Shown here one piece after another: positions 42,403 to 58,141 of a DNA stretch of 64,000 bases (position 1 is the stretch's first letter; every line of letters begins with the position of its first letter). The translations under genes and the position numbers were made by a program. Location of the stretch: NCBI RefSeq assembly GCF_038562415.1, contig NZ_JBCFBA010000015.1, forward strand, positions 62,001 through 126,000, written 5' to 3'. Under the pieces are notes generated by a model. It made no database searches and had not been told where the DNA came from. It saw only the letters and a list, made by a program, of their open reading frames with translations. The stretch comes from Solidesulfovibrio sp. (GTDB lineage Bacteria; Desulfobacterota; Desulfovibrionia; Desulfovibrionales; Desulfovibrionaceae).

Positions 42403-42738
42403 TCATGGCGCGGGTGGGCGGGTGTTGGCCTTGATGCAGGCGGCGGTGGCCGAGGCGGCCTTGCGCTGCATGTCCGGGGGCATGGCCCCGTTTCTCAGGA
42501 TGTAGTCCACGGTCTGGGAATTGATCAGCGCCCCGGTCTGCTGCATGGCGCACTTGCAGATGGCGGCGGTCTGGGCCTTGTTGTAGCCCTTCCTGGCGAA
42601 TTCCGCCTCCCGGGCCAGGCACTGCTGGGTCAGTTTCTCCGTCAGGTCCTTGCGCATGCCCGGCGTGACCTGCACCCCGGCCGCGCCGGCCAGGCCCGGC
42701 AGGCACACCACCACCAACAACAGTACCACATACCGCAT
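42403..42738 (-). CDS. Small secreted protein with three Cys, unknown function
   Basis: 111 residues with a clear signal peptide (VVLLLVVVCLPGLAGAAG). The mature part is helical and charged with Cys in LTQQCLARE, ICKCAMQQTG and TAACIKAN. The YNKAQTAAICKCAMQQTGAL segment looks like a small conserved periplasmic domain, but I cannot name a family. It lies downstream of the CydA-like/octahaem operon on the same strand, separated by REP-like DNA and a 47-base G run on its sense strand. That run lies about 130-180 bp upstream of its start and could affect expression. Confidence 0.72.
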   Translation of the reverse strand: MRYVVLLLVVVCLPGLAGAAGVQVTPGMRKDLTEKLTQQCLAREAEFARKGYNKAQTAAICKCAMQQTGALINSQTVDYILRNGAMPPDMQRKAASATAACIKANTRPPAP

Positions 42739-42868: not shown

Positions 42869-42916
<48 letters not shown>

Positions 42917-42965: not shown

Positions 42966-45611
42966 CTACTCCCGTTCCATATTCGGGTGATGGACGTCGC
43001 CGCCCTGCATCTCCACGGTGTGGCAGACGTCGCAGCGCTTGGCCGAGCCGACGACGCCCGGGAATCCCATGTACTGCATGGCCGGGATGTTGTTGCCGTC
43101 GAGGCCATAGCCGTTGGCGGCCACGAAGGTGGCATGGGGGCTGCCGTGGCAGGCCGCGCAGGGGATGTTGCCCGTGTCTTCCTTGCGGTTGCGGAAAAGC
43201 CCGGCCGCGTCCTTGGTCCAGGTGTTAAACGCCGAGGCCTTCGCCTCCGGCCGGGTGAAGTCCTTGTGGCAGGTCAGGCAGTCGGGCTCCTGCGTCCAGG
43301 CCGCCCGGGGCCGCACGTCGGCCACGGCCGCCACGCTTCGGGGCGAAAGCGGCGCCATGAGCCGGGCGGCGGCCGGCTTGCCGGCGGCCTTCTCGAAGGC
43401 CAAAAGCGACAGGGCGTGGTCTTCCATGTACCCGTGGCAGCGCGCGCAGCCGATGCCGGCGGCGGCATGGTTGTCGCGCTGGGCTTGGGTCACGCCGTCC
43501 GGGGAGGTCGGGTGGCAGTTGGAGCAGGCCGTTGCGTCCCCGCCGGCGAGGTAGGAGGCGTGGAAACCGTGGACCGCGGCGGACAGGCTCAAAAGGCCCG
43601 GCAGCCCCTTGCTGTCGATACCGGCGTTGGGGCTGGCGCTTTGGTGGCAGCCCTGGCAGGTCACGGGCGCGCCGGCCCTGGCCCGGGAAGCCAGGTCGGT
43701 GCCGTTTCGCTTGTCGTGGACGGCGAGAATCCCCTTGGCCGTGTCCGCGGAAACGCCGGTCACCCCGTCCACGGCGAAGGCGCCGCCGTGGCAGGTGAAG
43801 CAACGCATTTCCGTGGAGGCCGGGGCCAGGGCCTTGGTCACGGCCAGGGTTTCGCCGGTCTTGGCGTCCTTGGCCGTCAGCGTGAACACGGGGTAGGGAT
43901 CGACCCCGCCCTTGTCCGGATAGGGAGTCACGGGGATGCCGGCGGCACTGTAGAGCTTGTCGCCGGCGGCCATGGTTCCGTCCGGGGCGAGCCCGGTAAA
44001 CGACACGTCGGCGTCGAGCTTTTTGCCGATGATCTCCTTGGCATACTTCCAGAAGTCCGAGCGCGCCGCCGGGTGCTTGAAGCCCTCGGGCGCCTCGTAG
44101 GTCACGGTGACGTCCTGGGTGACGACCTCGGGCATGACGTCTCGCTTGACCAGCACGGCCGCCAGCGTGTTGCCGGGCACGCCCAGGGAAAACGAGCCGT
44201 CGCAGCCGGCCGTGGCCACAACGCCCAGGGAATTGAAGCCGATGAGCAGATAGGGCGCGCTGGCCGCGTCGAAGGGCGGCAGGTCGATCGCCGTCGGGGT
44301 CACGTCCACGGGCTTTTGGGCTACCGGCTTTTGGCCGTTTATGCCCTGGGCCAGGTAGGCGGCCAGGGCGGCCTTTTCCTCGGCGCTGCCGAGAAAGGGC
44401 GGCATGTGGGTAAAAAGCTTGCCCTGGCCGGTGAGGTAGGCCTCCAGGCCCGGGGCGTCGATGTGGGCGGTGTAGGCGCGGATGTCCTTGAACGGGCCGC
44501 CCACGCTGTGGCAGGCCAGGCACTGCATGGCGTAGAGTTCGCGGCCGGCCTCCTGGCCGTTTTGGGCCGTGACCTGCTTGACCTTGGCAAAGCGCGCCCG
44601 GGGCAGGAAGGGCGCGTCGTAGGGCGCGGCCTGGCCGGGGCGGATGTCCGTGGACCAGATCTGGCCGTGGACGAGCCAGGGCTTGCGGGCGGCCTCGCGG
44701 ATGGTCTCGAAGGTGCCGACGAGCCCCAGGCCGAGGACGAGCAGGATGACGGTCAGGGCCCGGCGCAGGGGCAGCGGCAGCCCGGTGACCAGGGCCATGG
44801 CCCCGGCGGCCAGGGCCACGAGCAGGAAGGGATAGCTCGTGCGCCAGGCCGCGATCTCGCCCGAGCGGCGCAGCACGAAGTCCCGCACCGCCTCGGGCAG
44901 CACGCCCACGTACCACCAGCCCGAAAGCAGCAGCACCGGGGCGCAGGCCACCACCCAGCGGCAGGCGCCGCGCAGCATGGTCTCCCGGGCCTTGGCGTCC
45001 GGGATGCCCAGCGCCGTGGCGAAGCCGAACAGCCCGGCCAGCAGCAAGGCCAGGGCAGAGCGCAGCACCAGGGACGGCCAGAAGGTGGGGTTGAAAAAGC
45101 CGTCCCAGAAGTCATGCGTCACCGGCCAGTCGCCCGGGGTGAGCATGAAGCCGATGATGCCGTTGACCGTGAAAAGCGACAGGAAGGCGAAGAGGAAATA
45201 GAGCCAGCCCACGCGCAGGTGGGTCTTCGCGTCCAGGCGGTCGAAGCCGTAGTAGTAAACGAGCAGGGCCGCGATCTCGCCGGCGAAAAACGCCCACTCC
45301 GTGGCCCAGCCCCAGGCGAAGGTGCGCACCAGGGTCAGCGTCGCCTGGGGGGAGAGGACGGAAATGGTCAGCCAGATGCCCACGCCCGAAAGCCCGCCGA
45401 AGACCATGGTCAAAAGCAGGAAGAAGCGGGTGTGGCGGTGCAGGTAGTCAAGCAGGGGTTTGGAGCCGAGCCGGCGGGCCTTGCGTTCGGTCAGGACCAG
45501 GAACAGGCCGCCGCCCACGGCGAAATGGGCCACGTAGACGTGGAGCACGGCAATGACGATGATCCAGAAGCCGCCACCGAAGGCGGACAGTTGCCAGACG
45601 GGGTATTCCAT
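42966..45611 (-). CDS. Cytochrome bd subunit I-like membrane protein fused to octahaem cytochrome c domain
   Basis: 881 residues. The N-terminal 330 residues form about eight membrane helices that align with CydA. AVLHVYVAHFAVGGGLFLVL places His24 at the haem b595 ligand position. TEWAFFAGEIAALLVYYYGF and FDRL correspond to the CydA Glu99/Glu107 helix and its GWDRL turn. At the equivalent of the haem b558 His186, FWPSLVLRSALALLLAG has no His. From about 360 to 881 a periplasmic domain carries eight CXXCH sites: CLACH, CFTCH, CQGCH, CSNCH, CARCH, CLTCH, CAACH and CDVCH. It probably passes electrons between the quinone pool and periplasmic cytochromes rather than reducing oxygen (inference). 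Second gene of a two-gene operon, 3 bp after its partner. Confidence 0.82.
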   Translation of the reverse strand: MEYPVWQLSAFGGGFWIIVIAVLHVYVAHFAVGGGLFLVLTERKARRLGSKPLLDYLHRHTRFFLLLTMVFGGLSGVGIWLTISVLSPQATLTLVRTFAWGWATEWAFFAGEIAALLVYYYGFDRLDAKTHLRVGWLYFLFAFLSLFTVNGIIGFMLTPGDWPVTHDFWDGFFNPTFWPSLVLRSALALLLAGLFGFATALGIPDAKARETMLRGACRWVVACAPVLLLSGWWYVGVLPEAVRDFVLRRSGEIAAWRTSYPFLLVALAAGAMALVTGLPLPLRRALTVILLVLGLGLVGTFETIREAARKPWLVHGQIWSTDIRPGQAAPYDAPFLPRARFAKVKQVTAQNGQEAGRELYAMQCLACHSVGGPFKDIRAYTAHIDAPGLEAYLTGQGKLFTHMPPFLGSAEEKAALAAYLAQGINGQKPVAQKPVDVTPTAIDLPPFDAASAPYLLIGFNSLGVVATAGCDGSFSLGVPGNTLAAVLVKRDVMPEVVTQDVTVTYEAPEGFKHPAARSDFWKYAKEIIGKKLDADVSFTGLAPDGTMAAGDKLYSAAGIPVTPYPDKGGVDPYPVFTLTAKDAKTGETLAVTKALAPASTEMRCFTCHGGAFAVDGVTGVSADTAKGILAVHDKRNGTDLASRARAGAPVTCQGCHQSASPNAGIDSKGLPGLLSLSAAVHGFHASYLAGGDATACSNCHPTSPDGVTQAQRDNHAAAGIGCARCHGYMEDHALSLLAFEKAAGKPAAARLMAPLSPRSVAAVADVRPRAAWTQEPDCLTCHKDFTRPEAKASAFNTWTKDAAGLFRNRKEDTGNIPCAACHGSPHATFVAANGYGLDGNNIPAMQYMGFPGVVGSAKRCDVCHTVEMQGGDVHHPNMERE

Positions 45612-45614
45612 GGC

Positions 45615-46664
45615 TTAGGGCCTCCCCGCCTGGCCGCGGTAGCGGCAAACCGCCCAGGCGACAGCCGCCCCGACCGCGGCGCAAGCGGCCAGGAACATGA
45701 AAAACGGGCCATACTGCGCCGCGACGGGCAACGAGGCCGGGGAAAAAACCGGGGCCAGGCTGGCCAGCCTGGCCAACTCGCGCACCGCCACCATGGCGCA
45801 GGCCGTGGCCACGGCGAAAAAGGCCGCCCCGCCCACCGCACCCCGAAGCCCCTGGATAAGCGCCGCGCCGGCCAGGCACACGCCGATGGCCAGCACGGCC
45901 GTGGCCAGGCCGTCGCCGCCCAGAAACGCCCAGTGCACCGCGCGCGGCTGGGCGAAAAGGTACCACGGCCCGAGCGCGAACTGGGCCATGGTCGCCCGGG
46001 TGAACCAGGCCAGGCCCAGGCGCGCGCGTTCACCGGCCGCCGCGTCGCCCCGGGCCGCCGCCTTGCGGTTGAGGATGGCCAGGAACAGCCCGGCCACGGC
46101 CAGGGAGGCGGCCACGAAATGGAGCCAGCGGGGCAGAAAGGTGGCGTCGCCGAAATTGAGGATGGTGCCGCCCGGGTTGTCGAAATAGGCCATCCAGGCG
46201 GCCGGCCGCACGGCCAGGGAGGAGACGTTGACCAGGATGCCGCTTGCCGCCGCGAGCAGTACGGCGGCCACGGCCAGGGCCGGTTTCGAGGCCGAAAGGG
46301 CCAGGCGCGGCTGGGCCTTGTAGAGCAGCGCGTAGGCGAGCATGACCACCAGGAAAAGCGACAGCCAGAAGGCGGCCGAAAGCACGGCGGCGGTATAGAG
46401 GTATTGGCCGTAGAGCACCGAGGCGAACAACAGCGGCGGGATGGCCAGGTTGACGCCCACGGCCACGGCCGTGGGCAGTTTGCCGCCGAGGGAAACGGCC
46501 GCCCCCCGGTCCCGGCCGGGGGTGAACAGGGCGATGAGCGTGCCGCCGAGGACGACGTTGACGACCAGCAGGTGGGCCGCGAACGTCGGCAACAACAGCA
46601 GTTCGAACATCCCCCAGGGAGCGGGCAGGGCCAGCCCGGGGGGCGCGGCAAGGGGCGGATGCAT
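45615..46664 (-). CDS. Polytopic membrane protein, partner subunit of the octahaem fusion (distant CydA-like)
   Basis: 349 residues, about nine membrane helices, no cytoplasmic domain. The first helix LLPTFAAHLLVVNVVLGGTL places a His and a following Gly-Gly in the same pattern as the first helix of the fusion protein and of CydA, so it may be a second, divergent CydA-like subunit (inference). Further His residues occur in FLPRWLHFVAASLAVAGL and QPRAVHWAFLGGD and could ligate haem b. I take ATG 46664 with AAGGAG 12 nt upstream; a TTG at 46691 is less likely. It is transcribed just ahead of the octahaem gene. Confidence 0.72.
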   Translation of the reverse strand: MHPPLAAPPGLALPAPWGMFELLLLPTFAAHLLVVNVVLGGTLIALFTPGRDRGAAVSLGGKLPTAVAVGVNLAIPPLLFASVLYGQYLYTAAVLSAAFWLSLFLVVMLAYALLYKAQPRLALSASKPALAVAAVLLAAASGILVNVSSLAVRPAAWMAYFDNPGGTILNFGDATFLPRWLHFVAASLAVAGLFLAILNRKAAARGDAAAGERARLGLAWFTRATMAQFALGPWYLFAQPRAVHWAFLGGDGLATAVLAIGVCLAGAALIQGLRGAVGGAAFFAVATACAMVAVRELARLASLAPVFSPASLPVAAQYGPFFMFLAACAAVGAAVAWAVCRYRGQAGRP

Positions 46665-46982
46665 GGCGGACGATCTCCTTGTTGCGGGCAAGCCGACGGC
46701 CGGGCGCGGCCAGGGCGGACACCAGGCGTCTGATCACGGTTTTTCCCACGGTACTACATGAACGAGTTGTCAGAAACAACATCGGCGGCGCAAGAGGCCC
46801 TTGCCCGGCCGGGATTGCCGCCCCCCGCCCCCTCGACGCCGCCGGCCGGCCATGCTAGAGGCGGCGCAAAAAAGGGGAGTGCCTCCCCTGGTTTTTCCCT
46901 TTTCCCGCCCGGCCCTTGCCCTTGGACGGTCCAAGGCCATTTCCCCAACCGGGCGGGTTTTTCTTTTCCGGAGGTTTTCGCC
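46665..46982. other. Divergent intergenic region with several dyad elements
   Basis: 318 bp between the leftward cytochrome operon and the rightward 46983 gene. It contains GTTGT-N5-ACAAC at 46766-46780, a bidirectional terminator-like hairpin at 46873-46889 and the palindrome CCTTGGAC-G-GTCCAAGG at 46920-46936. No gene was found in it. Confidence 0.55.
46873..46889. terminator. Bidirectional terminator-like hairpin
   Basis: AGGGGAG-TGC-CTCCCCT flanked by A5 on the left and GGTTTTT on the right, so it could stop transcription in either direction. No recognised gene ends into it on either strand. Confidence 0.5.
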
Positions 46983-47165
46983 ATGGACAAGCGGGAGAAC
47001 CTGGCCTTGCAGGTGACCAAGGAAATCGTGGTCAAATTCGTGGAAACCGGGCGCATCTCGCCCGGCAACTTCACCGAGCATTTCGGCCCCATCTACGAAG
47101 AGGTGCTGCGCGTGATCACACGCGGCGAAACCGGCGCGGGCAAGGACGGGCGCGACGATGGCTGA
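46983..47165 (+). CDS. Small conserved-looking protein upstream of ubiE
   Basis: 60 residues: MDKRENLALQVTKEIVVKFV, then ETGRISPGNFTEHFGPIYEE and a charged tail. A strong GGAGG lies 8 nt before the ATG, and the stop overlaps the ubiE start by 8 nt. Helical, soluble and without a recognised family. The coupling to ubiE suggests a link to menaquinone synthesis, without direct evidence. Confidence 0.78.
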   Translation: MDKRENLALQVTKEIVVKFVETGRISPGNFTEHFGPIYEEVLRVITRGETGAGKDGRDDG

Positions 47166-47877
47166 TCTGCCCGTTCCCGGCGACTCGGGCCGGGTGGCCG
47201 GCATGTTCGGCCGGGTGGCCGGCCATTACGACCTGCTCAACCACCTGCTGTCGGCCGGGCTGGACATCGCCTGGCGCCGGGCCATGGTCCGGGGGCTGCT
47301 CGCCCCGGGGCTGCCGTCCGGGCCGGTCCTGGACCTGGCCGCCGGCACCCTGGACGTGTCGCTGCTGCTGTCGCGCCAGGGCCGGCGGGACATCGTGGCC
47401 GTGGACCCCTGCCTGCCCATGCTGGCCCGGGGCCGGTCCAAGATCCCGGCCGGACCGGGCGCGGCCATCCACCCCGTGCTCGGCGACGGGCTGGCCCTGC
47501 CGCTGCCCGACGGGGCCCTCGCCGGCGCCACCATCGCGTTTGGCATCCGCAACATCCGGCCCCGGCCGGCGGCCTTCGCGGAGCTCGCCCGGGTGGTCAA
47601 ACCCGGCGGCCGGCTGATGGTGCTGGAATTCGGCACGGGCAAGCGCCGGCTGTGGGGCGGGGCCTACAACTTCTACCTGCGAAACGTGCTGCCCCGAATC
47701 GGCAAGCTGGTCTCGGGCGACGACGAGGCCTACCGCTACCTGGCCGCAACGATCCGGGAATTCCCCGACGAGGCGACCCTGGCCACGGAGATGCGCCGGG
47801 CCGGCTTTCGGGACGTGACCTACCGGGCCATGACCGGGGGGATCGTCTTCCTGCACGCCGGGGTCAAGGCCCCATAA
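47158..47877 (+). CDS. ubiE: Demethylmenaquinone methyltransferase (UbiE/MenG)
   Basis: 239 residues. SAM-dependent C-methylation of demethylmenaquinone, the last step of menaquinone synthesis. Family features: VAGMFGRVAGHYDLLNHLLS near the N-terminus, SAM site VLDLAAGTLDVSLLLS, LALPLPDGALAGATIAFGIRN, and ELARVVKPGGRLMVLEFG. Sulfate reducers of this group use menaquinone, so menG is the functional name. It lies near mqnB, mqnD and a polyprenyl diphosphate synthase, which fits one pathway, although a leftward DUF2065 gene and a sugar dehydrogenase intervene. Confidence 0.92.
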   Translation: MADLPVPGDSGRVAGMFGRVAGHYDLLNHLLSAGLDIAWRRAMVRGLLAPGLPSGPVLDLAAGTLDVSLLLSRQGRRDIVAVDPCLPMLARGRSKIPAGPGAAIHPVLGDGLALPLPDGALAGATIAFGIRNIRPRPAAFAELARVVKPGGRLMVLEFGTGKRRLWGGAYNFYLRNVLPRIGKLVSGDDEAYRYLAATIREFPDEATLATEMRRAGFRDVTYRAMTGGIVFLHAGVKAP

Positions 47878-47884
47878 CGACGCG

Positions 47885-48088
47885 TCAGCCCATGGCGCGC
47901 AGGATGAAGAGGAGCGCCAGGCCGGCCAGCATGGCCGTCATGCCCAGGGTCCGCAGTTCGCGGGGCCGGCGCTCGGACAGGGCGCGCAGGACCGTGGGCA
48001 TTTTTTCGGCCGCCAGGAAATACGGCAGCCCCTCGAGAATGAAGGCCAGGCCCAGGGCCGTGAGAAAAAGCTTCCAGTCGAAGTGCAT
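47885..48088 (-). CDS. DUF2065 small membrane protein (YjeT-like)
   Basis: 67 residues. Two membrane helices: FLTALGLAFILEGLPYFLAA and LGMTAMLAGLALLFILRAMG, separated by MPTVLRALSERRPRELR, the DUF2065 pattern. I start at ATG 48088 (MHFDWKLFL), which matches family length, although GGGAG abuts the codon. The alternative ATG at 48118 adds ten residues and has no better site. Function unknown. It converges on ubiE with a 7-bp gap. Confidence 0.75.
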   Translation of the reverse strand: MHFDWKLFLTALGLAFILEGLPYFLAAEKMPTVLRALSERRPRELRTLGMTAMLAGLALLFILRAMG

Positions 48089-48227
48089 CTCCCAACGATA
48101 CGGCCTCGGCCGGAACATGTAAATACGCCCGTCTTGCCGGCCGGCCCGCTTTGCGCTATCGGGCGATCGGGGCCTTCCCCACACCGCTTCCGGAGCCTTC
48201 CCCTTTCCCGTAAAAGGAGCCTTTCCA

Positions 48228-49541
48228 TTGATCCAATTCGAGGACATCCGCGCGAAAAACGCGCCCATGGCCGTCATCGGCCTCGGCTATGTCGGCCTGC
48301 CCCTGGCCGTGGCCCTGGCCCGGCACTTCGACGTGGTCGGCTTCGACATCAAGCCCGAGCGTATCGAAGAACTGCGAGCGGGCCGCGACAACACCCTGGA
48401 AGTCGACCCGGCCGACCTGGCCGCCGTCTCCATCCGCTACACCGCCGAGGCGGCCGACCTCGCCCCGTGCAAGCTCTTCATCGTGGCCGTGCCCACGCCG
48501 ATAAACGCCAACCGCGTGCCGGACCTCGGCCCCCTGGTCGGGGCCTCGCGGCTTCTCGCCGGCTATTTGAGCGACGGCTGCGTGGTGGTCTACGAATCCA
48601 CGGTCTACCCCGGGCTCACCGAGGAAGTCTGCCAGCCCCTGCTGGAAAAAGGCTCGGGACTGTGCGCCGGCAAGGATTTCTTCCTCGGCTACTCCCCGGA
48701 GCGCATCAACCCCGGCGACAAGGTCCACACGCTGCAGACCGTGGTGAAAATCGTCTCCGGCCAGACCCCGGAAGTCACGGACCTGCTGGCCGACGTCTAC
48801 GGCACGGTGGTTACGGCCGGCATCCACAAGGCCCCGTCCATCAAGGTGGCCGAGGCGGCGAAGGTCATCGAAAACACCCAGCGCGACATCAACATCGCGC
48901 TGATGAACGAGTTGTCGCTTATCTGCGAACGCCTGGACATCGACACCGTCGAGGTGCTGCGCGCGGCCGAGACCAAGTGGAACTTCCTGCCCTTCCGCCC
49001 CGGCCTGGTCGGCGGCCACTGCATCGGCGTGGACCCCTACTACCTGCTGTACAAGGCCCAGAGCCTCAACCTGCACCCGCAGGTCATCCCGGCCGGCCGG
49101 CGCATCAACGACTCCATCGGCAAGCACATCGCCGAGGCCACGGTCAAGATGCTCATCCGTTCGGAGTGCCGGGCCTCGTGCGCCCGGGTCGGGGTGCTTG
49201 GGCTGACGTTCAAGGAAAACGTGCCGGACCTGCGCAACACCAAGGTCGTGGATATCGTGCGCGAACTGTGCGAGTTCCGCATCCGGGTCCTCGTCCACGA
49301 CCCCATGGCCGATCCCGAGGAGGCCCGCGAGGAATACAACCTCACGCTGGCCCCGCGCGAGGAACTGCGCGAACTCGACGCGCTGATCGTGGCCGTGGCC
49401 CACGACGCCTTCAAGGCCCTCACCCTGGCCGAACTGGCGACCTGGTTCCGGCCCAGCGCCGAGCCCATCCTGGTGGACGTCAAGGGCCTCTACCACCGCC
49501 AGGCCGCCGAGGCCGCCGGCTTCCGCTACTGGCGGCTCTAG
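48228..49541 (+). CDS. Nucleotide-sugar dehydrogenase (TviB/WbpA/UDP-glucose dehydrogenase family)
   Basis: 437 residues. NAD-dependent oxidation of a UDP-sugar, most like UDP-N-acetylhexosamine 6-dehydrogenases of the Vi/WbpA type. NAD site PMAVIGLGYVGLPLAVALAR; YESTVYPGLTEEVC; FFLGYSPERINPGDK; catalytic Cys in VGGHCIGVDPYYLLYKAQ; VGVLGLTFKENVPDLRN. It begins with TTG at 48228, which has AAAAGGAG 8 nt upstream; no ATG fits the family N-terminus. It probably supplies a uronic sugar for surface glycan. Confidence 0.9.
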   Translation: MIQFEDIRAKNAPMAVIGLGYVGLPLAVALARHFDVVGFDIKPERIEELRAGRDNTLEVDPADLAAVSIRYTAEAADLAPCKLFIVAVPTPINANRVPDLGPLVGASRLLAGYLSDGCVVVYESTVYPGLTEEVCQPLLEKGSGLCAGKDFFLGYSPERINPGDKVHTLQTVVKIVSGQTPEVTDLLADVYGTVVTAGIHKAPSIKVAEAAKVIENTQRDINIALMNELSLICERLDIDTVEVLRAAETKWNFLPFRPGLVGGHCIGVDPYYLLYKAQSLNLHPQVIPAGRRINDSIGKHIAEATVKMLIRSECRASCARVGVLGLTFKENVPDLRNTKVVDIVRELCEFRIRVLVHDPMADPEEAREEYNLTLAPREELRELDALIVAVAHDAFKALTLAELATWFRPSAEPILVDVKGLYHRQAAEAAGFRYWRL

Positions 49542-49558
49542 CCGTCTTTCGACGCACC

Positions 49559-50368
49559 ATGAGCGAATCCGACGCAACACCCGCCGCACCGACGCCTCCG
49601 GGCGCCAGCCCCCGGGACGGGAGGTCCAGGAGGGACAGTGTCCCTCCTGGCCGCCGGAGGCATCTTCTCTTCGCCCTCGCCACGGCCAGGGAATACGCCG
49701 CCGCCTTCGGCCCCCTGGGCGCGCCGGCCGCCCCGCCGCCCGGGCAGGCCGTGGCCTGGGGCCGGGGGGGCCTCGACTGCCTGCTCCTCGTGACCGGCGT
49801 CGGGCCGGTGGCCGCCGCCCTGACCGTGGGCCGCGTACTGGGCCGGTTCGAGGGGGATATCGGCGGCGTGGTCAACAGCGGCATCGCCGGCGGCTACGAC
49901 CTGGCCGCGACACCGCTGGCCTCCCTGGTGGCGGCCACCAGCGAAGCCCTGCCCGAATACGGCATCCGCACCGGCGCCGGCACGGACAGCGCCGGCCTGG
50001 CCTTTCCCCAACTGTGCCCGGCGGGCGCCCCGGTCTTCGACCGCCTGCCCCTCGATCCGGCCGCCGCCGTCGCGGCCATGGGGCTTGCCCCGCCGCCCGG
50101 CGTCATCCCCGGCCCGGCCGTGACCGTGGCCGGCGTTTCGGGCGATCCCGACCGGGCGGCCATCCTGTGCCGCAAATACCGGGCCCGAAGCGAATCCATG
50201 GAAGGCTTCGCCGTGGCCCTGGCCGCCGCCGCCGCCGGGCTGCCCTTCCTGGAACTGCGCGCCATTTCCAACCGGGTCGGCTGCCGGCCGCCCGAGGCCT
50301 GGGACCTGCCCGGGGCGCTGGCCGCCCTGGGCCGGGCCGTGGCCGGACTTTTTCCCAAGCGAGGCTGA
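49559..50368 (+). CDS. mqnB: Futalosine hydrolase, with a REP-derived N-terminal extension
   Basis: 269 residues. Splits futalosine to hypoxanthine and dehypoxanthine futalosine in the menaquinone route. The purine nucleoside phosphorylase-like core starts at HLLFALATAREYAAAFG (about residue 35) and includes LLVTGVGPVAAALT, VVNSGIAGGYD and ARSESMEGFAVALAAA. The first 34 residues are Pro/Arg/Ser-rich. Codons about 21-36 are encoded by a palindromic repeat (49620-49666), so the extension probably came from repeat insertion. ATG 49559 is the only start in frame that I see, with a poor ribosome-binding site. It precedes mqnD by 4 bp. Confidence 0.87.
   Translation: MSESDATPAAPTPPGASPRDGRSRRDSVPPGRRRHLLFALATAREYAAAFGPLGAPAAPPPGQAVAWGRGGLDCLLLVTGVGPVAAALTVGRVLGRFEGDIGGVVNSGIAGGYDLAATPLASLVAATSEALPEYGIRTGAGTDSAGLAFPQLCPAGAPVFDRLPLDPAAAVAAMGLAPPPGVIPGPAVTVAGVSGDPDRAAILCRKYRARSESMEGFAVALAAAAAGLPFLELRAISNRVGCRPPEAWDLPGALAALGRAVAGLFPKRG
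49620..49666. repeat. REP-like palindromic element B, inside the mqnB frame
   Basis: CCAGGAGGGACA, one base, TGTCCCTCCTGG: a perfect 12-bp stem. The outer flanks GAGGT and CCGCCGGAGGC match element A exactly. The inner three base pairs differ from element A on both arms in a compensating way. It is read in frame as part of mqnB. Confidence 0.8.
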
Positions 50369-50372
50369 CACC

Positions 50373-51239
50373 ATGTCCGACGTCATCACCGTGGCCATTT
50401 CCCCCTGCCCCAACGACGTGGTCATTTTCGGGGCCTGGCTCCTCGGCCTGGTCGGCCTGCCCGACGCCCGGGCCGCCTTCGCCTTCGAGGACGTGGAAAC
50501 CCTCAACGAGGCGGCCATGGCCGGCGCCTACGACGTGGTCAAGGTCTCGGCGGCCATGGCCGCGCCGCTGGCCGAAACCTACGACGTCCTGCCCTCGGGC
50601 GCGGCCTTCGGCTTCGGCGCCGGGCCGAAGCTGGTCGTGGCCCGGGATTTCTCCGGCCGGCCCGGCACGGTCGCCGTGCCCGGGCTTCGCACCACGGCGG
50701 CCACGCTGTTGCGCGCCGCCCTGGCCGAGGACCACGGCCGGGCCGACCTGCCCCCGCCCGACGCAACCTTCGTGCCCGTGCGCTACGACGCCATCGTGGC
50801 GGCGGTGCAGGATGGCCGGGCTCAGGCGGGGCTTCTTATCCACGAAACGGCCCTGGCCGCCGCCGGCCACGGCCTGCGCCTGGTCCTGGACATGGGCCGG
50901 TGGTGGCAACAGCGCGTGCCGGCCTCGCCCGTGCCGCTGGGCGTGATCCTGGCCAAAAAGAGTCTGGGGCCGGCCCGCGTGGCCGCCGTGGCCGAGGTGC
51001 TGCGGGCAAGCCTGGCCGCCGCCCGGGAGAAACCTGGCGAAGTGGCGCCCCTGGCCAGGCTGCTGGCCCGCGAAAAGGACCGGGCCGTCATCGAGGCCCA
51101 TATCGCGGCCTATGTCGGGGAGCTGAGCGTCGAGATGGGCGAAACGGGTCGCCTGGCCCTGGCGCAACTCGAAAAGCTGGCCCGGCACGGCCGTTTCCCG
51201 GCCGCCCCCCCCTTGCCAGCCCGGGACATTAGCTGTTAA
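50373..51239 (+). CDS. mqnD: 1,4-dihydroxy-6-naphthoate synthase
   Basis: 288 residues. Converts cyclic dehypoxanthine futalosine to 1,4-dihydroxy-6-naphthoate in the futalosine route. The family signature SPCPNDVVIF is at residues 10-19. Then VETLNEAAMAGAYDVVKVSA, the GPKLVVARDF strand and LIHETAL follow, in the periplasmic binding-protein-like fold. A fold-conserved GRWW and the C-terminal helices complete it. It lies between mqnB and a polyprenyl synthase, all within a few bases, so they form an operon. mqnA and mqnC are not in the window. Confidence 0.92.
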   Translation: MSDVITVAISPCPNDVVIFGAWLLGLVGLPDARAAFAFEDVETLNEAAMAGAYDVVKVSAAMAAPLAETYDVLPSGAAFGFGAGPKLVVARDFSGRPGTVAVPGLRTTAATLLRAALAEDHGRADLPPPDATFVPVRYDAIVAAVQDGRAQAGLLIHETALAAAGHGLRLVLDMGRWWQQRVPASPVPLGVILAKKSLGPARVAAVAEVLRASLAAAREKPGEVAPLARLLAREKDRAVIEAHIAAYVGELSVEMGETGRLALAQLEKLARHGRFPAAPPLPARDISC

Positions 51240-51249
51240 ACGCCAGCGG

Positions 51250-52218
51250 ATGAGCGATTTCGCGGACATTTTATCTCGGGAAGTCCCGGCCATCAACGAC
51301 TACCTGGAGGAAAAGGCCGCCACCCTTTCCCCCCTGGTCCAGCCGGTGGTGCGCCATGTGCTGTTGGCCGGCGGCAAGCGCCTGCGTCCGCTGCTCACGA
51401 TCCTCGTGGCCAGGGCTCTGGGCTACCGCGGCGACGACGTCTATCCCCTGGCCTGCTCCCTGGAATTCCTGCATTCCGCCACGCTGCTCCACGACGACAT
51501 CGTCGACGGCGCGCCGCTTCGCCGGGGCCGCGAATCCGCCCATGTGCGCTTCGGCTCCACCCACACCATCCTGGCCGGCGACGTGCTGCTGGCCCTGGCC
51601 AACCGCACCGTGGCCGAATACGACAACCCGCAGCTGACCCGCATCCTGTCCGAGGCGCTGCTCCAGACCGCCACCGGCGAGATTCTCGAAATCGCCCACC
51701 TGCGCGACGTGGACCTGCCGCTGCAAACCTATCTTTCCATCATCACCGGCAAGACCGCCTACCTGCTGCAGGCGGCCTGCCAATGCGGCGCGGTCCTGGC
51801 CGGCGCGGACGAGACCCGTTGCGAAGCGGCCCAGAGCCTCGGCGTCAACTGCGGCATCGCCTTTCAGCTCGTGGACGACGCCCTGGACTACACCTCCCCG
51901 GCCGCCGTTTCCGGCAAGCCCACCGGCGGCGACCTCAAGGAAGGCAAGGTCACCCTGCCGCTGATCCTCTACCTGGCCGAACTGCCCTTCGACGCCCGCC
52001 GCCGCCTGGCCGAGGACTTCCGCCAGGACCAGCTTTCCGCCGAGGACATCGAATATTTGCGCGGCAACATCGTCGCCGGCGGGCACGCCGAGAAGACCCG
52101 GGAAATGGCCGCCGCGTACCTGGAGAAAGCGCAAACCGCCCTGGCCCACTTTCCGCCCTCGCCCGAGGCCGAGCTGATCGGCCAGGTGCTGGCGCCCATG
52201 CTCGCCCGGGACAAATAG
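51250..52218 (+). CDS. Long-chain polyprenyl diphosphate synthase
   Basis: 322 residues. Builds the isoprenoid tail of menaquinone by head-to-tail condensation of IPP. First aspartate-rich motif LLHDDIVDGAPLRRG, second motif QLVDDALDYTSP, with GGKRLRPLL at the N-terminus and KLTLP-like GKVTLPLIL. Two residues upstream of the first DDxxD motif are small, consistent with a long-chain (C30-C40) product, but chain length is not certain. It is 10 bp after mqnD and probably the final gene of the menaquinone operon. Confidence 0.9.
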   Translation: MSDFADILSREVPAINDYLEEKAATLSPLVQPVVRHVLLAGGKRLRPLLTILVARALGYRGDDVYPLACSLEFLHSATLLHDDIVDGAPLRRGRESAHVRFGSTHTILAGDVLLALANRTVAEYDNPQLTRILSEALLQTATGEILEIAHLRDVDLPLQTYLSIITGKTAYLLQAACQCGAVLAGADETRCEAAQSLGVNCGIAFQLVDDALDYTSPAAVSGKPTGGDLKEGKVTLPLILYLAELPFDARRRLAEDFRQDQLSAEDIEYLRGNIVAGGHAEKTREMAAAYLEKAQTALAHFPPSPEAELIGQVLAPMLARDK

Positions 52219-55483: not shown

Positions 55484-55612
55484 CCCGCGCCGAAAAACCG
55501 TCCGCCACGCCGCGACTTCCCGCTTCCCGGGGCGATACCGCCTTGATCGGCCGCAGGAAGTAGGGTAATGGCAACGGCAATTTCCCCCACCCTCAGCAGA
55601 GGAGCCGTGATC

Positions 55613-56119
55613 ATGTCGGTCCGTCGGAGCTCTCTTGTGGCAACCTTTCTGGCTGCGGGCCTGCTGACCTGCCCGCTCGGCTCCGTTTTGGCCCAGCAAA
55701 CCGGTGACTCGACGCCACGGGCGGCCACGCCCGTCGCCTACGTCGGCTCGGCGGCCTGCAAGGACTGCCACGCCAAGGAGTATGAATCCTACTCCAAATA
55801 CTCGAAAAAGGCCCATTCTTCCCAGTCGGTGAAAATCATGGCCCCCAAGCTCACCGCCGAGGAACTGACGGGGTGCTATGCCTGCCATACCACGGGCTAC
55901 GGCCAGCCCGGCGGCTTCGTGAGCTTCGAGAAAACCCCCGAGCTGGCCAATGCCGGCTGCGAGGTCTGCCACGGCCCGGGCGCGGCCCATGTCGATTCCG
56001 GCGGCGACCCGGGGCTGATCAAAAACAAGCTGTCCATGTCCGAGTGCGAGCGCTGCCACAACGCCGAACGGGTGCGCAACTTCAACTTCAAACCCATGCT
56101 CTTCGCCGGGGCGCACTAG
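55613..56119 (+). CDS. Periplasmic tetrahaem cytochrome c (c554-like)
   Basis: 168 residues with a signal peptide ending near LGSVLAQQ, so it is exported and matured in the periplasm. Four CXXCH motifs: CKDCH, CYACH, CEVCH and CERCH. The order and spacing resemble cytochrome c554-like domains (YVGSAACKDCHAKEY). ATG 55613 has GAGGAG 8 nt upstream. It is 6 bp before the haem-c chemoreceptor gene. The two probably form an operon, suggesting the cytochrome exchanges electrons with, or is sensed alongside, that receptor (inference). Confidence 0.9.
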   Translation: MSVRRSSLVATFLAAGLLTCPLGSVLAQQTGDSTPRAATPVAYVGSAACKDCHAKEYESYSKYSKKAHSSQSVKIMAPKLTAEELTGCYACHTTGYGQPGGFVSFEKTPELANAGCEVCHGPGAAHVDSGGDPGLIKNKLSMSECERCHNAERVRNFNFKPMLFAGAH

Positions 56120-56125
56120 GAGGTC

Positions 56126-58141
56126 ATGATGGGCGTTATTTCCCGCTCCCTCGGCCTCAAGGTGCTGCTGCTGGTTTCGGGCCTGACCGTCCTGGCCTTC
56201 ACCGGGCTTTTTTTGGCCAACGCCCACTGGCAGCGCCAGGGCTCGGTGACCCAGATCGACCGCGCCTCCAGGCGCGCCAGCGACATGCTGCGCATGGCCA
56301 TCGAGGAGCCCATGCGCCTGGGCAAGAACGCCGAGACCACGGCCCAATTCGCCAGGGTGGCCGCCGCGCAAAAAGACATCAAGGTCTTCCTGACGGATTT
56401 CCGGGGCAATGTGACCTATTCCACGGACGCCTCGGCCGTGCGCCGCGATTTTTCCAGCATCACCACCGACGCCGACATCGCCACCCTGGTGCGCAAGACC
56501 CTTTCCGGCGAATTCCACGGCGGCGACATCCTGCCCTGGGAAGGCAAACCGGCCTACCTCGCCGTCAATTCCGTCAAAAACGAGCCCGAATGCCACCATT
56601 GCCACGGTGCCTCCAAACCCATCCTCGGCGCCATGGTCGTGGTTCAGGACATCACCCCGGAATTGTCGCGCCTGTCGGCCGACCAGTTTAAAAGCGCCGG
56701 GCTGTCCCTGGCCGGCATGGTCGCCCTGCTGGCCGCCCTGCTCCTTTTCATGAAGTATTCCGTGGTCGGCCGGGTCCGGAAACTGGCCGCCGTGTCCGAC
56801 GCCATCAGCCGCGGCTCCCTGGACATCGCCTTCAACGTGCCGGGGCACGACGAGATCGCCGCCCTGGCCAAGAACCTCTCGGCCATGGTCGGCAACATCA
56901 AGGACCAGCTCGAATACAACCGGGGCATCTTAAACGGCGTCATCATCCCCATCTTCGTGGCCGACAAGGAGCGCCGCTTCGAATTCGTCAACACCCCCCT
57001 GCAAAACATTCTCGGCAAAACCGACGCCGAAATGCTCGGCCGCCTGGTCTCCGACAGCTTCATCCGCGAGGACGGCCGGTCGGGCTGCGCCGCGGTGCTC
57101 GCTTCCGGGGAGTGCGCCAGCGGCTTCACCCGCTTCACCCGGGCCGACGGCCGCGTCTTTCCCCTGCATTACGAGATCTCGCCGCTCAAAAACGCCGGCG
57201 GCGACGTGGTGGGAGTCATCGGCGTGCTCATCGACCTGACCCAGGAGGAAAAGGACAAGGACCACATCCGCGCCCAGCGGGCCAAGCTGCTCACCGTGGC
57301 CGACGAGGTCACGGCCGTGGCCCGGGAACTCTCCGACGCCTCCGACGCCCTGACCGCCCGCATGGAGGAACTCACCGGCGGCGTGGAAAATACCGCCCGG
57401 GAGACCGAACGCGTGGCCACGGCCATGGAGGAGATGAACGCCACGGTCCTGGAAGTGGCCCAGAACGCCGGCGATACGGCCCAGGCCTCGGATACGGCCA
57501 CCCAGGCGGCCATGGAGGGCGGCCAGGAGGTGGCGCGCACCGTGGAGGAAACGCGCCAGGTTTCGGCCAAGACCACCGACCTGGCCAGTTCCTTGACCAC
57601 CCTGGAAAACCGGGCCGTGGGCATCGGCCAGGTGCTTTCGGTCATCGGCGACATCGCCGACCAGACCAACCTGCTGGCCTTAAACGCCGCCATCGAGGCG
57701 GCCCGGGCCGGCGAGGCCGGCCGGGGCTTCGCCGTGGTGGCCGACGAGGTGCGCAAGCTGGCCGAAAAGACCATGACGGCCACGGGCGAGGTGGCCACGG
57801 CCGTCAGCGACATCCAGGCCAGCACCCGCCAGGCCGTGGCCGGCATGAACGACACCAAGTCCAAGGTGGAGATGACCGCCGCGATGGCCGAACGCTCGGG
57901 CACGGTGCTCACGCGCATCGTCGAGCAGTCCAACCGCATCGCCGACATGGTGCGCAACATCGCCGCGGCCTCGGAACAGCAGTCGGCCACCAGCGAGGAG
58001 GTCAACAGCAGCGTGAGCCACATCAACGAGCTGTCCAAGGACATCTCCCGCCGGATCGCGGAGGCCAACGGCCGCATCGGCGAAGTGCGTTCCATGGCCC
58101 ACCAGCTGGCCAAGCTCGTGGAACAGTTCCGGGAAGCGTAG
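56126..58141 (+). CDS. Methyl-accepting chemotaxis protein with haem c sensory domain (DcrA-like)
   Basis: 671 residues. TM1 at about 8-30, a periplasmic domain to about 190 with a CXXCH site (CHHCH, Cys156-His160) in the region [22 protein letters not shown]2 at about 191-211, HAMP, a cytoplasmic PAS domain (about 270-380), then a full MCP signalling domain with hairpin tip [20 protein letters not shown]. DcrA of Desulfovibrio vulgaris senses oxygen or redox through such a haem c. The gene is directly coupled to a tetrahaem cytochrome gene. Start ATG 56126 follows TAGGAGG; ATG 56129 also possible. Confidence 0.92.

What the first reader, a model, noticed from the sequence alone, without database searches (positions are those of the whole stretch)
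42966..46664. Two-gene complex: CydA-like membrane subunit fused to eight c-type haems, with a second CydA-like partner
The N-terminal 330 residues of the larger protein align with cytochrome bd subunit I around the b595 His, the helix carrying Glu99/Glu107 and the GWDRL turn. The b558 His position appears to hold no His. The C-terminus has eight CXXCH sites. The partner also has a first-helix His in the same pattern. There is no CydB-like gene and no oxygen-reductase context. The combination suggests a quinone-linked membrane complex feeding or draining a periplasmic multihaem wire, a variant of the bd superfamily with probably a different reaction. I recall that divergent bd-superfamily members have been reported from genome surveys, but not a defined function for this arrangement.
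Basis: partly seen in the sequence, partly recalled or inferred. Interest (0 to 1): 0.85.

Follow-up and report, generated by a model that had tools for sequence, protein, structure and literature searches.

The report
Octahaem-fused cytochrome bd-like oxidase pair
A sulfate-reducing bacterium carries a relative of the oxygen-consuming enzyme cytochrome bd whose main subunit is fused to eight c-type haems and seems to have lost its quinol site, so it probably burns oxygen with electrons from periplasmic cytochromes instead of membrane quinol; this is a prediction, not yet tested.

Summary
Genes 42966-45611 (P1, 881 aa) and 45615-46664 (P2), minus strand, form a two-gene unit in a Solidesulfovibrio-like genome. 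P1 has a cytochrome bd subunit I fold: Pfam is marginal, but profile comparison with CydA gives E 5.6e-11 and the 20 best solved structures are bd chains. The b558 histidine is absent in all 47 and the Q-loop is gone. P2 is a P1 paralogue with no sequence tie to CydB and has its own invariant H40, H191 and M300. A His/Met mono-haem c domain is universal; the other seven haems are optional. Some relatives lie next to oxygen-defence genes, more often than expected. Best reading: a quinol-independent, cytochrome-c-fed bd-type oxygen reductase of the CydAA' kind (OR-C/OR-N families in print), here with a fused heptahaem antenna. The quinone-linked, different-reaction reading is not supported. New variant of a known kind. 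O2 activity, haem content and the complex are untested.

The parts
42966..45611 (-). P1: bd subunit I-like membrane protein fused to eight c-type haems, 881 aa
44622..45611 (-). P1 residues 1-330: membrane domain with bd fold, eight long helices in the model
45540..45542 (-). P1 H24, equivalent of E. coli CydA H19 (oxygen-site haem ligand)
   Evidence: alignment; 47 of 47 rows; 63 of 63
45276..45299 (-). P1 E105 to E112, equivalents of E99 and E107 (oxygen site / proton path)
   Evidence: 47 of 47 each; 63 and 62 of 63
45060..45065 (-). P1 L183-R184: column of the b558 ligand H186 (no His in 47 rows) and the invariant Arg beside it
   Evidence: alignments
44676..44708 (-). P1 residues 302-312 ETIREAARKPW: E306 and R309 stand for E445 and R448; extra invariant E302 (where CydA has W441) and R305
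   Evidence: E 5.5e-6 over 18 columns
44337..44552 (-). P1 residues 354-425: mono-haem cytochrome c domain, C364-x-x-C367-H368 with M403
   Evidence: invariant in 47 of 47 rows
43017..43814 (-). P1 residues 600-865: seven further CXXCH haems (c7/c3/MtrC-like profiles)
   Evidence: six kept in 30 of 30 long rows, the last in 22 of 22 that reach it
45615..46664 (-). P2: second bd-fold subunit (CydA'-like), 349 aa from its likely start; residue numbers in the text count from the ORF start at 46691
46572..46574 (-). P2 H40, first-helix His
   Evidence: 55 of 55 rows; kept in 4 of 4 type C partners
46119..46121 (-). P2 H191, aligned with the b558 ligand H186 of CydA
45792..45794 (-). P2 M300, invariant Met in the helix matching the E445 helix; candidate haem ligand
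46675..46680 (-). Shine-Dalgarno-like AAGGAG ahead of P2

Best explanation
P1 and P2 are the two core subunits of a quinol-independent bd-type oxygen reductase of the CydAA' kind. Periplasmic cytochromes of the c3 type (reduced by hydrogenase or formate dehydrogenase; inferred) give electrons to the seven C-terminal haems of P1. These pass them to the universal His/Met haem c at C364, which takes the place of haem b558, and on to the b595/d-type haem pair held by H24 and E306 in P1, where O2 is reduced to water with protons drawn through E105/E112. P2, a duplicated CydA-type subunit without that glutamate set, fills the CydB place and probably holds one or two b haems (H40, H191, M300). The unit would let a sulfate reducer consume O2 straight from its periplasmic cytochrome pool. 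Shown: homology, fold, residue conservation, pairing, haem motifs, gene context. Inferred: donors, electron order, haem type, O2 as substrate, P2's haems and its place in the complex.
For: bd membership: pairwise hhalign to CydA prob 97.1, E 5.6e-11; hmmsearch hit on solved bd subunit I 5doq_A, E 1.8e-13; the 20 best Foldseek hits of the P1 model (pLDDT 89.2) are bd chains. Oxygen-site residues invariant in 47 of 47 rows, E445 motif aligned separately. b558 and quinol features absent. Haem c domain with C364/C367/H368/M403 in 47 of 47, including 15 of 15 short rows that have no other CXXCH. P2 is a P1 paralogue (E 5.2e-11) and unrelated to CydB by sequence. The pair is stable: 43 genomes hold both among 56 with P1 and 45 with P2 of 297, adjacent in 41 of 43. 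Oxygen-defence context: in family f13 the pair lies in a run of peroxiredoxin, flavodoxin and flavodiiron-type genes (4 of 4 loci read), with rubrerythrin and desulfoferrodoxin at two of them and a Fur-type regulator close by at three; flavodiiron gene within 5 kb in 6 of 55 genomes against 0.33 expected.
Against: No biochemistry, no haem placed, no two-chain model. 49 of 55 genomes have no flavodiiron gene within 5 kb, this one included (11.9 kb), and the 6 come from only 3 families. The clearest oxygen-defence runs belong to mono-haem relatives 34-35% identical, not to the octahaem form. In G161 P1 and P2 lie 1.8 Mb apart, and its nearby flavodiiron gene is beside P2 alone. W441 of CydA is an invariant Glu (E302) in P1, so the site is not identical. 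The same genome already has two canonical CydA genes, so the need for a third is unexplained.
Confidence: 0.66

Rival explanations
1. Quinone-linked complex: quinol is oxidised, or quinone reduced, in the membrane part and electrons leave or enter through the multihaem chain, as proposed for the Ohc complex; no O2 chemistry.
For: Menaquinone genes lie next door (47.2-52.2 kb). P2 keeps a b558-like His H191. P2's model also resembles, more weakly, the quinone-binding subunit 2vpw_C (rank 12, E 0.045). CydB of E. coli can hold a quinone in the matching fold (PMC8951039, passages).
Against: No Q-loop in P1 or P2: helices 6 and 7 are 13-14 residues apart in the models, against a long loop with invariant K244 and E249 in canonical CydA; b558 His gone from P1; a conserved oxygen-site set would have no purpose; I recognised no menaquinone gene beside the pair outside the genus in the flanks I could see, which were not scanned systematically.
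Confidence: 0.15
2. Reductase of another small oxidant (NO, peroxide) at the bd-type site, fed by cytochrome c, as part of oxidative or nitrosative defence.
For: Flavodiiron proteins such as those next door can reduce NO as well as O2 (D. gigas ROO, PMC4287179 passage); peroxiredoxin and rubrerythrin neighbours; invariant E302 where CydA has W441.
Against: The residue set otherwise equals that of O2-reducing bd enzymes. I recognised no nitrite or NO gene among the neighbours seen, but ran no search for such genes.
Confidence: 0.13
3. Extracellular-electron-transfer conduit that uses a bd fold only as membrane anchor, the haem pocket being a relic.
For: MtrC/MtrF-like and c7 profile matches in the C-terminal haems and an OmcA match in the same region; separate multihaem genes next to the pair in some relatives (L070, L088, L094, L095).
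Against: Oxygen-site residues strictly kept, also in relatives with one haem c only. I recognised no porin gene beside the pair in the flanks seen, but did not search for one.
Confidence: 0.05

Closest known systems
CydAA'-type bd-superfamily enzymes, OR-C and OR-N families (Murali, Gennis and Hemp 2021; recalled, paper not held; families named in passages of PMC10839748, PMC12342949, PMC13189123, PMC11707229)
   Same: No quinol site, partner derived from CydA, cytochrome c expected as donor (said of OR-N in PMC10839748).
   Different: Here a heptahaem extension is fused behind the mono-haem c domain; whether OR-C or OR-N could not be tested.
Canonical cytochrome bd (CydAB, qOR families)
   Same: Fold and oxygen-site residues H19, E99, E107, E445, R448.
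   Different: No b558 His, no Q-loop, no CydB; W441 replaced by Glu; fused c haems.
Octahaem cytochrome complex Ohc of sulfate reducers (PMC4287179, passage)
   Same: Eight-haem c-type part with a membrane part in Desulfovibrio-type bacteria.
   Different: Proposed there to feed the quinone pool; here the membrane part is bd-fold and an oxygen site is kept. No Ohc sequence was compared.
cbb3 and caa3 cytochrome c oxidases
   Same: Works alike if the reading is right: periplasmic haem c domain (CBB3-type profile) feeding an O2 site in the membrane.
   Different: Those have a haem-copper catalytic subunit (background knowledge), unrelated to the bd fold found here.

Membership tests
Cytochrome bd superfamily (CydA fold) | Significant profile match to subunit I | tested here: met
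   Pfam 26.7 bits vs 26.2; hhalign E 5.6e-11; 5doq_A E 1.8e-13
Cytochrome bd superfamily (CydA fold) | bd fold in predicted structure | tested here: met
   P1: top 20 PDB hits all bd chains; P2: top 11 all bd chains, best E 1.1e-3
Cytochrome bd superfamily (CydA fold) | Oxygen-site residues H19, E99, E107, E445, R448 | tested here: met
   H24, E105, E112, E306, R309 in 47 of 47 rows; W441 is Glu
Canonical CydAB quinol oxidase (qOR) | b558 His and Met ligands in subunit I | tested here: not met
   His column holds F, L, M or Y in 47 rows; no His or Met conserved in half or more of the rows between residues 157 and 300
Canonical CydAB quinol oxidase (qOR) | Q-loop with quinol site | tested here: not met
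   13-14 residues, mostly a short helix, between helices 6 and 7 in the P2 and P1 models; canonical loop of some 80 residues as read from the alignment
Canonical CydAB quinol oxidase (qOR) | CydB partner | tested here: not met
   P2 vs CydB hhalign prob 0.2, E 0.25; CydA vs CydB also fails in this test, so it cannot exclude a distant tie
CydAA'-type OR-C/OR-N | Second subunit is a CydA-type paralogue, no quinol site | tested here: met
   P2 vs P1 hhalign prob 97.1, E 5.2e-11; P2 vs CydA directly only prob 65.9, E 5.7e-5
CydAA'-type OR-C/OR-N | Placement in the published OR-C or OR-N tree or HMMs | not testable with these tools
   Paper not held
Oxygen reductase (function) | O2 reduced with cytochrome c as donor | not testable with these tools
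   needs bench work
Ohc octahaem complex | Sequence relation to the Ohc subunits | not tested
   No Ohc sequence was at hand; the membrane part here is bd-fold

The most novel reading that the evidence does not exclude
A bd-type oxygen reductase wired directly to the periplasmic (perhaps extracellular) multihaem network, with haem c replacing b558 and a second, redox-active haem-bearing CydA-type subunit, in all perhaps eight c and three or four b/d haems: an energy-conserving H2/formate-to-O2 path in strict anaerobes that bypasses the quinone pool.
Probability: 0.35. Interest if true: 0.75.

Novelty: new variant of a known kind. Interest (0 to 1): 0.55.

Why it matters
Desulfovibrio-type sulfate reducers respire O2 although they are called strict anaerobes, and how electrons from periplasmic cytochromes reach O2 is not settled (background knowledge). 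This unit is common there: 121 of 199 sampled family genomes have a P1-type match, 94 of the 199 with a frame of 800 aa or more as in the octahaem form. It gives a directly testable candidate for that path, and a natural case in which a bd oxidase lost its quinol site and gained a cytochrome chain.

Tried and rejected
Literature: eight paper searches were answered; in the listings and passages seen I met no description of a bd-type subunit fused to a multihaem domain. This covers only the open-licence library searched, and no paper was read whole: passages were seen of PMC12342949, PMC10839748, PMC9040806, PMC10732223, PMC8951039, PMC13189123, PMC11707229 and PMC4287179; of PMC7618691, PMC12569097 and PMC4215793 only reference lists. 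Murali et al. 2021 could not be read.

CydB as partner: rejected by sequence, but the same test also finds no CydA-CydB tie, so the fold likeness to CydB stands beside it. P2 has no Pfam or NCBIfam match and no significant PDB sequence match.

Menaquinone neighbours as functional link: dropped, because I recognised none beside the pair outside the genus in the flanks I could see; this was not a systematic scan.

R184 as the residue at the b558 His position: my first hand alignment; the profile alignments put L183 there and R184 next to it.

Tree: separates the mono-haem relatives, the relatives with a dihaem partner and the multihaem clade, but its A/M labels are wrong for loci cut at 4 kb, and long branches meet, so its change counts are not used.

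Promoter and terminator scan: nothing decisive. One search's output was cut, so not every locus context was seen.
Full report
What is there. The window lies in a 5.07 Mb genome. The three named-collection matches to P1 are 81-84% identical; two are Solidesulfovibrio, one a Desulfovibrio MAG. On the minus strand P2 (ATG at 46664 with AAGGAG ahead) is followed after 3 bp by P1 (42966-45611). P1 has eight CXXCH motifs; 2000 shuffles gave at most one.

P1 is a bd protein. Pfam is marginal (26.7 bits, cut-off 26.2, residues 19-232). An alignment of 47 rows (A2: the window and 46 relatives) against 17 canonical CydA sequences of the same genus (A3) gives pairwise hhalign probability 97.1, E 5.6e-11; the profile hits the solved subunit 5doq_A at E 1.8e-13. 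The AlphaFold model (pLDDT 89.2) has cytochrome bd chains as its 20 best PDB matches, best E 2e-7.

The oxygen site is kept. The alignment pairs H24, E105 and E112 with the canonical residues that correspond to E. coli H19, E99 and E107 (E. coli numbers recalled). Its local match stops before the last helix, so I aligned that part separately: IREAARKPWLVHG pairs with VAEVGRQPWIVYG, E 5.5e-6 over 18 columns, whereas a control against the N-terminal part of CydA gave nothing. Thus E306 and R309 stand for E445 and R448. H24, E105, E112, E302, R305, E306, R309 and P311 are the same in 47 of 47 rows; in the wider set of 63, E112 and E302 are in 62 and the others named here in 63 (rows under 80% cover, duplicates and own-genome copies dropped before). 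Where CydA has W441, P1 has the invariant E302, a real difference.

The quinol side is lost. The column of the b558 histidine falls on L183 (F 25, L 19, M 2, Y 1 of 47; no His), beside the invariant R184, and no His or Met is conserved in half or more of the rows between residues 157 and 300. Canonical CydA has R318-x-M320 and a long loop with the invariant K244 and E249; in the models of P1 and P2 helices 6 and 7 are 14 and 13 residues apart.

The c domains. Residues 354-425 match CBB3-type and c6-type cytochrome c; C364, C367, H368 and M403 are invariant in all 47 rows, including 15 rows of 480 aa or less that have no other CXXCH. The other seven motifs are kept in the long rows that reach them: 30 of 30 for six, 22 of 22 for the last; one frame of 870 aa, L092, has only seven motifs in all. 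In some relatives a multihaem protein related to P1's C-terminal part is a separate gene next door (L088, L094, L095), in others none was seen, and in another clade P2 carries two haems and a gene for a dihaem SoxA/TsdA-like cytochrome adjoins the pair (L084, L086, L096). So the mono-haem domain is the core entry and the heptahaem part an add-on.

P2. No Pfam, NCBIfam or significant PDB sequence match. Its model (pLDDT 92.6) has bd chains as its 11 best PDB matches and 14 of the best 15 (rank 12 is a polysulfide reductase subunit), but weakly: E 1.1e-3 to 1.4e-2 for the 11. By profile it is a paralogue of P1 (prob 97.1, E 5.2e-11), weakly like CydA (prob 65.9, E 5.7e-5, pairing H40 with H19 and H191 with H186), and shows no tie to CydB (CydA itself shows none in the same test). 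H40, H191, M300 and R304 are invariant in 55 of 55 rows and kept in 4 of 4 type C partners looked at. These are candidate haem ligands; no haem was placed.

A conserved pair. Among 297 genomes sampled over the phylum, 56 have P1-type and 45 P2-type matches, 43 both; in 41 of the 43 the genes lie within 2 kb. Exceptions: G155 (pieces on two contigs) and G161 (1.8 Mb apart). The 13 P1-only genomes include at least one whose partner is too divergent for a one-sequence search (G053), and some very weak hits. In the family, 121 of 199 genomes have a P1 match; 110 of these are strong, 94 with a frame of 800 aa or more, 16 shorter only.

Context. At one f13 locus (L128) the order is rubrerythrin, desulfoferrodoxin, ferritin, flavodoxin, peroxiredoxin, flavodoxin, P1, P2, flavodiiron-type protein; L131 is alike without the ferritin, L129 and L130 are shorter; a Fur-type gene is nearby at L129, L130 and L131. 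At three f9 loci (L074, L141, L147; L147 starts at P2) a peroxiredoxin and a flavodoxin lie next to it. Over 55 genomes with P1 or P2, 6 have a flavodiiron gene within 5 kb, against 0.33 expected for random places (Poisson 1.3e-6; counting only the three families involved, 0.005). I had seen two of these contexts before choosing the test, and 49 of 55 genomes do not show it. In the window, rubredoxin and a flavodiiron protein lie 12 kb off.

How it most likely works. Electrons from the periplasmic cytochrome pool enter the heptahaem part, pass to haem C364, then to the haem pair of H24/E306, where O2 is reduced with protons taken through E105/E112. Everything beyond homology, residues, pairing and context is inference.

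Known or new. Print knows three bd families, qOR, OR-C and OR-N (passages of PMC13189123; PMC11707229; PMC10839748; PMC12342949), with OR-N thought to use cytochrome c and to pair two CydA-type subunits; poorly characterised bd-like terminal oxidase complexes also occur in Manganitrophaceae (PMC9040806, passages). The founding paper was not held, so placement in OR-C or OR-N is untested; that OR-C carries haem c is recalled. The fused octahaem form did not turn up in the searches listed. I call it a new variant of a known kind.

Noticed in passing
42869-42915, + strand: A run of 47 consecutive C (G on the coding strand) in the gap just downstream of P1's stop; could be a slippage-prone repeat or an assembly artefact.
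   Followed up: partly
42403-42738, - strand: Small secreted-looking 111 aa protein without Pfam match; relatives lie downstream of the pair in L004 and L006, after another gene.
   Followed up: partly
47158-52218, + strand: Menaquinone genes that look like the futalosine type (UbiE family, a PNP_UDP_1 phosphorylase, VitK2_biosynth, polyprenyl synthase) beside the pair.
   Followed up: partly
55568-58141, + strand: Tetrahaem c554-like cytochrome followed by a PAS/HAMP/MCP signalling protein that carries one CXXCH; possibly a haem-based redox sensor.
   Followed up: no
L084, L086, L096, L098; P1-type frame also in G409 and G351 of the same genus: A second clade of such pairs: P1 with one haem c and a 521-523 aa partner with two CXXCH, with a SoxA/TsdA-like dihaem cytochrome gene at L084, L086 and L096. 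In G409 and G351 only the 451 aa P1-type frame was seen.
   Followed up: partly
L128:2302-3009 and L141:8514-9230: The peroxiredoxin beside the pair is in two consecutive pieces of one frame, split by TGA in both loci; perhaps a selenocysteine codon.
   Followed up: partly
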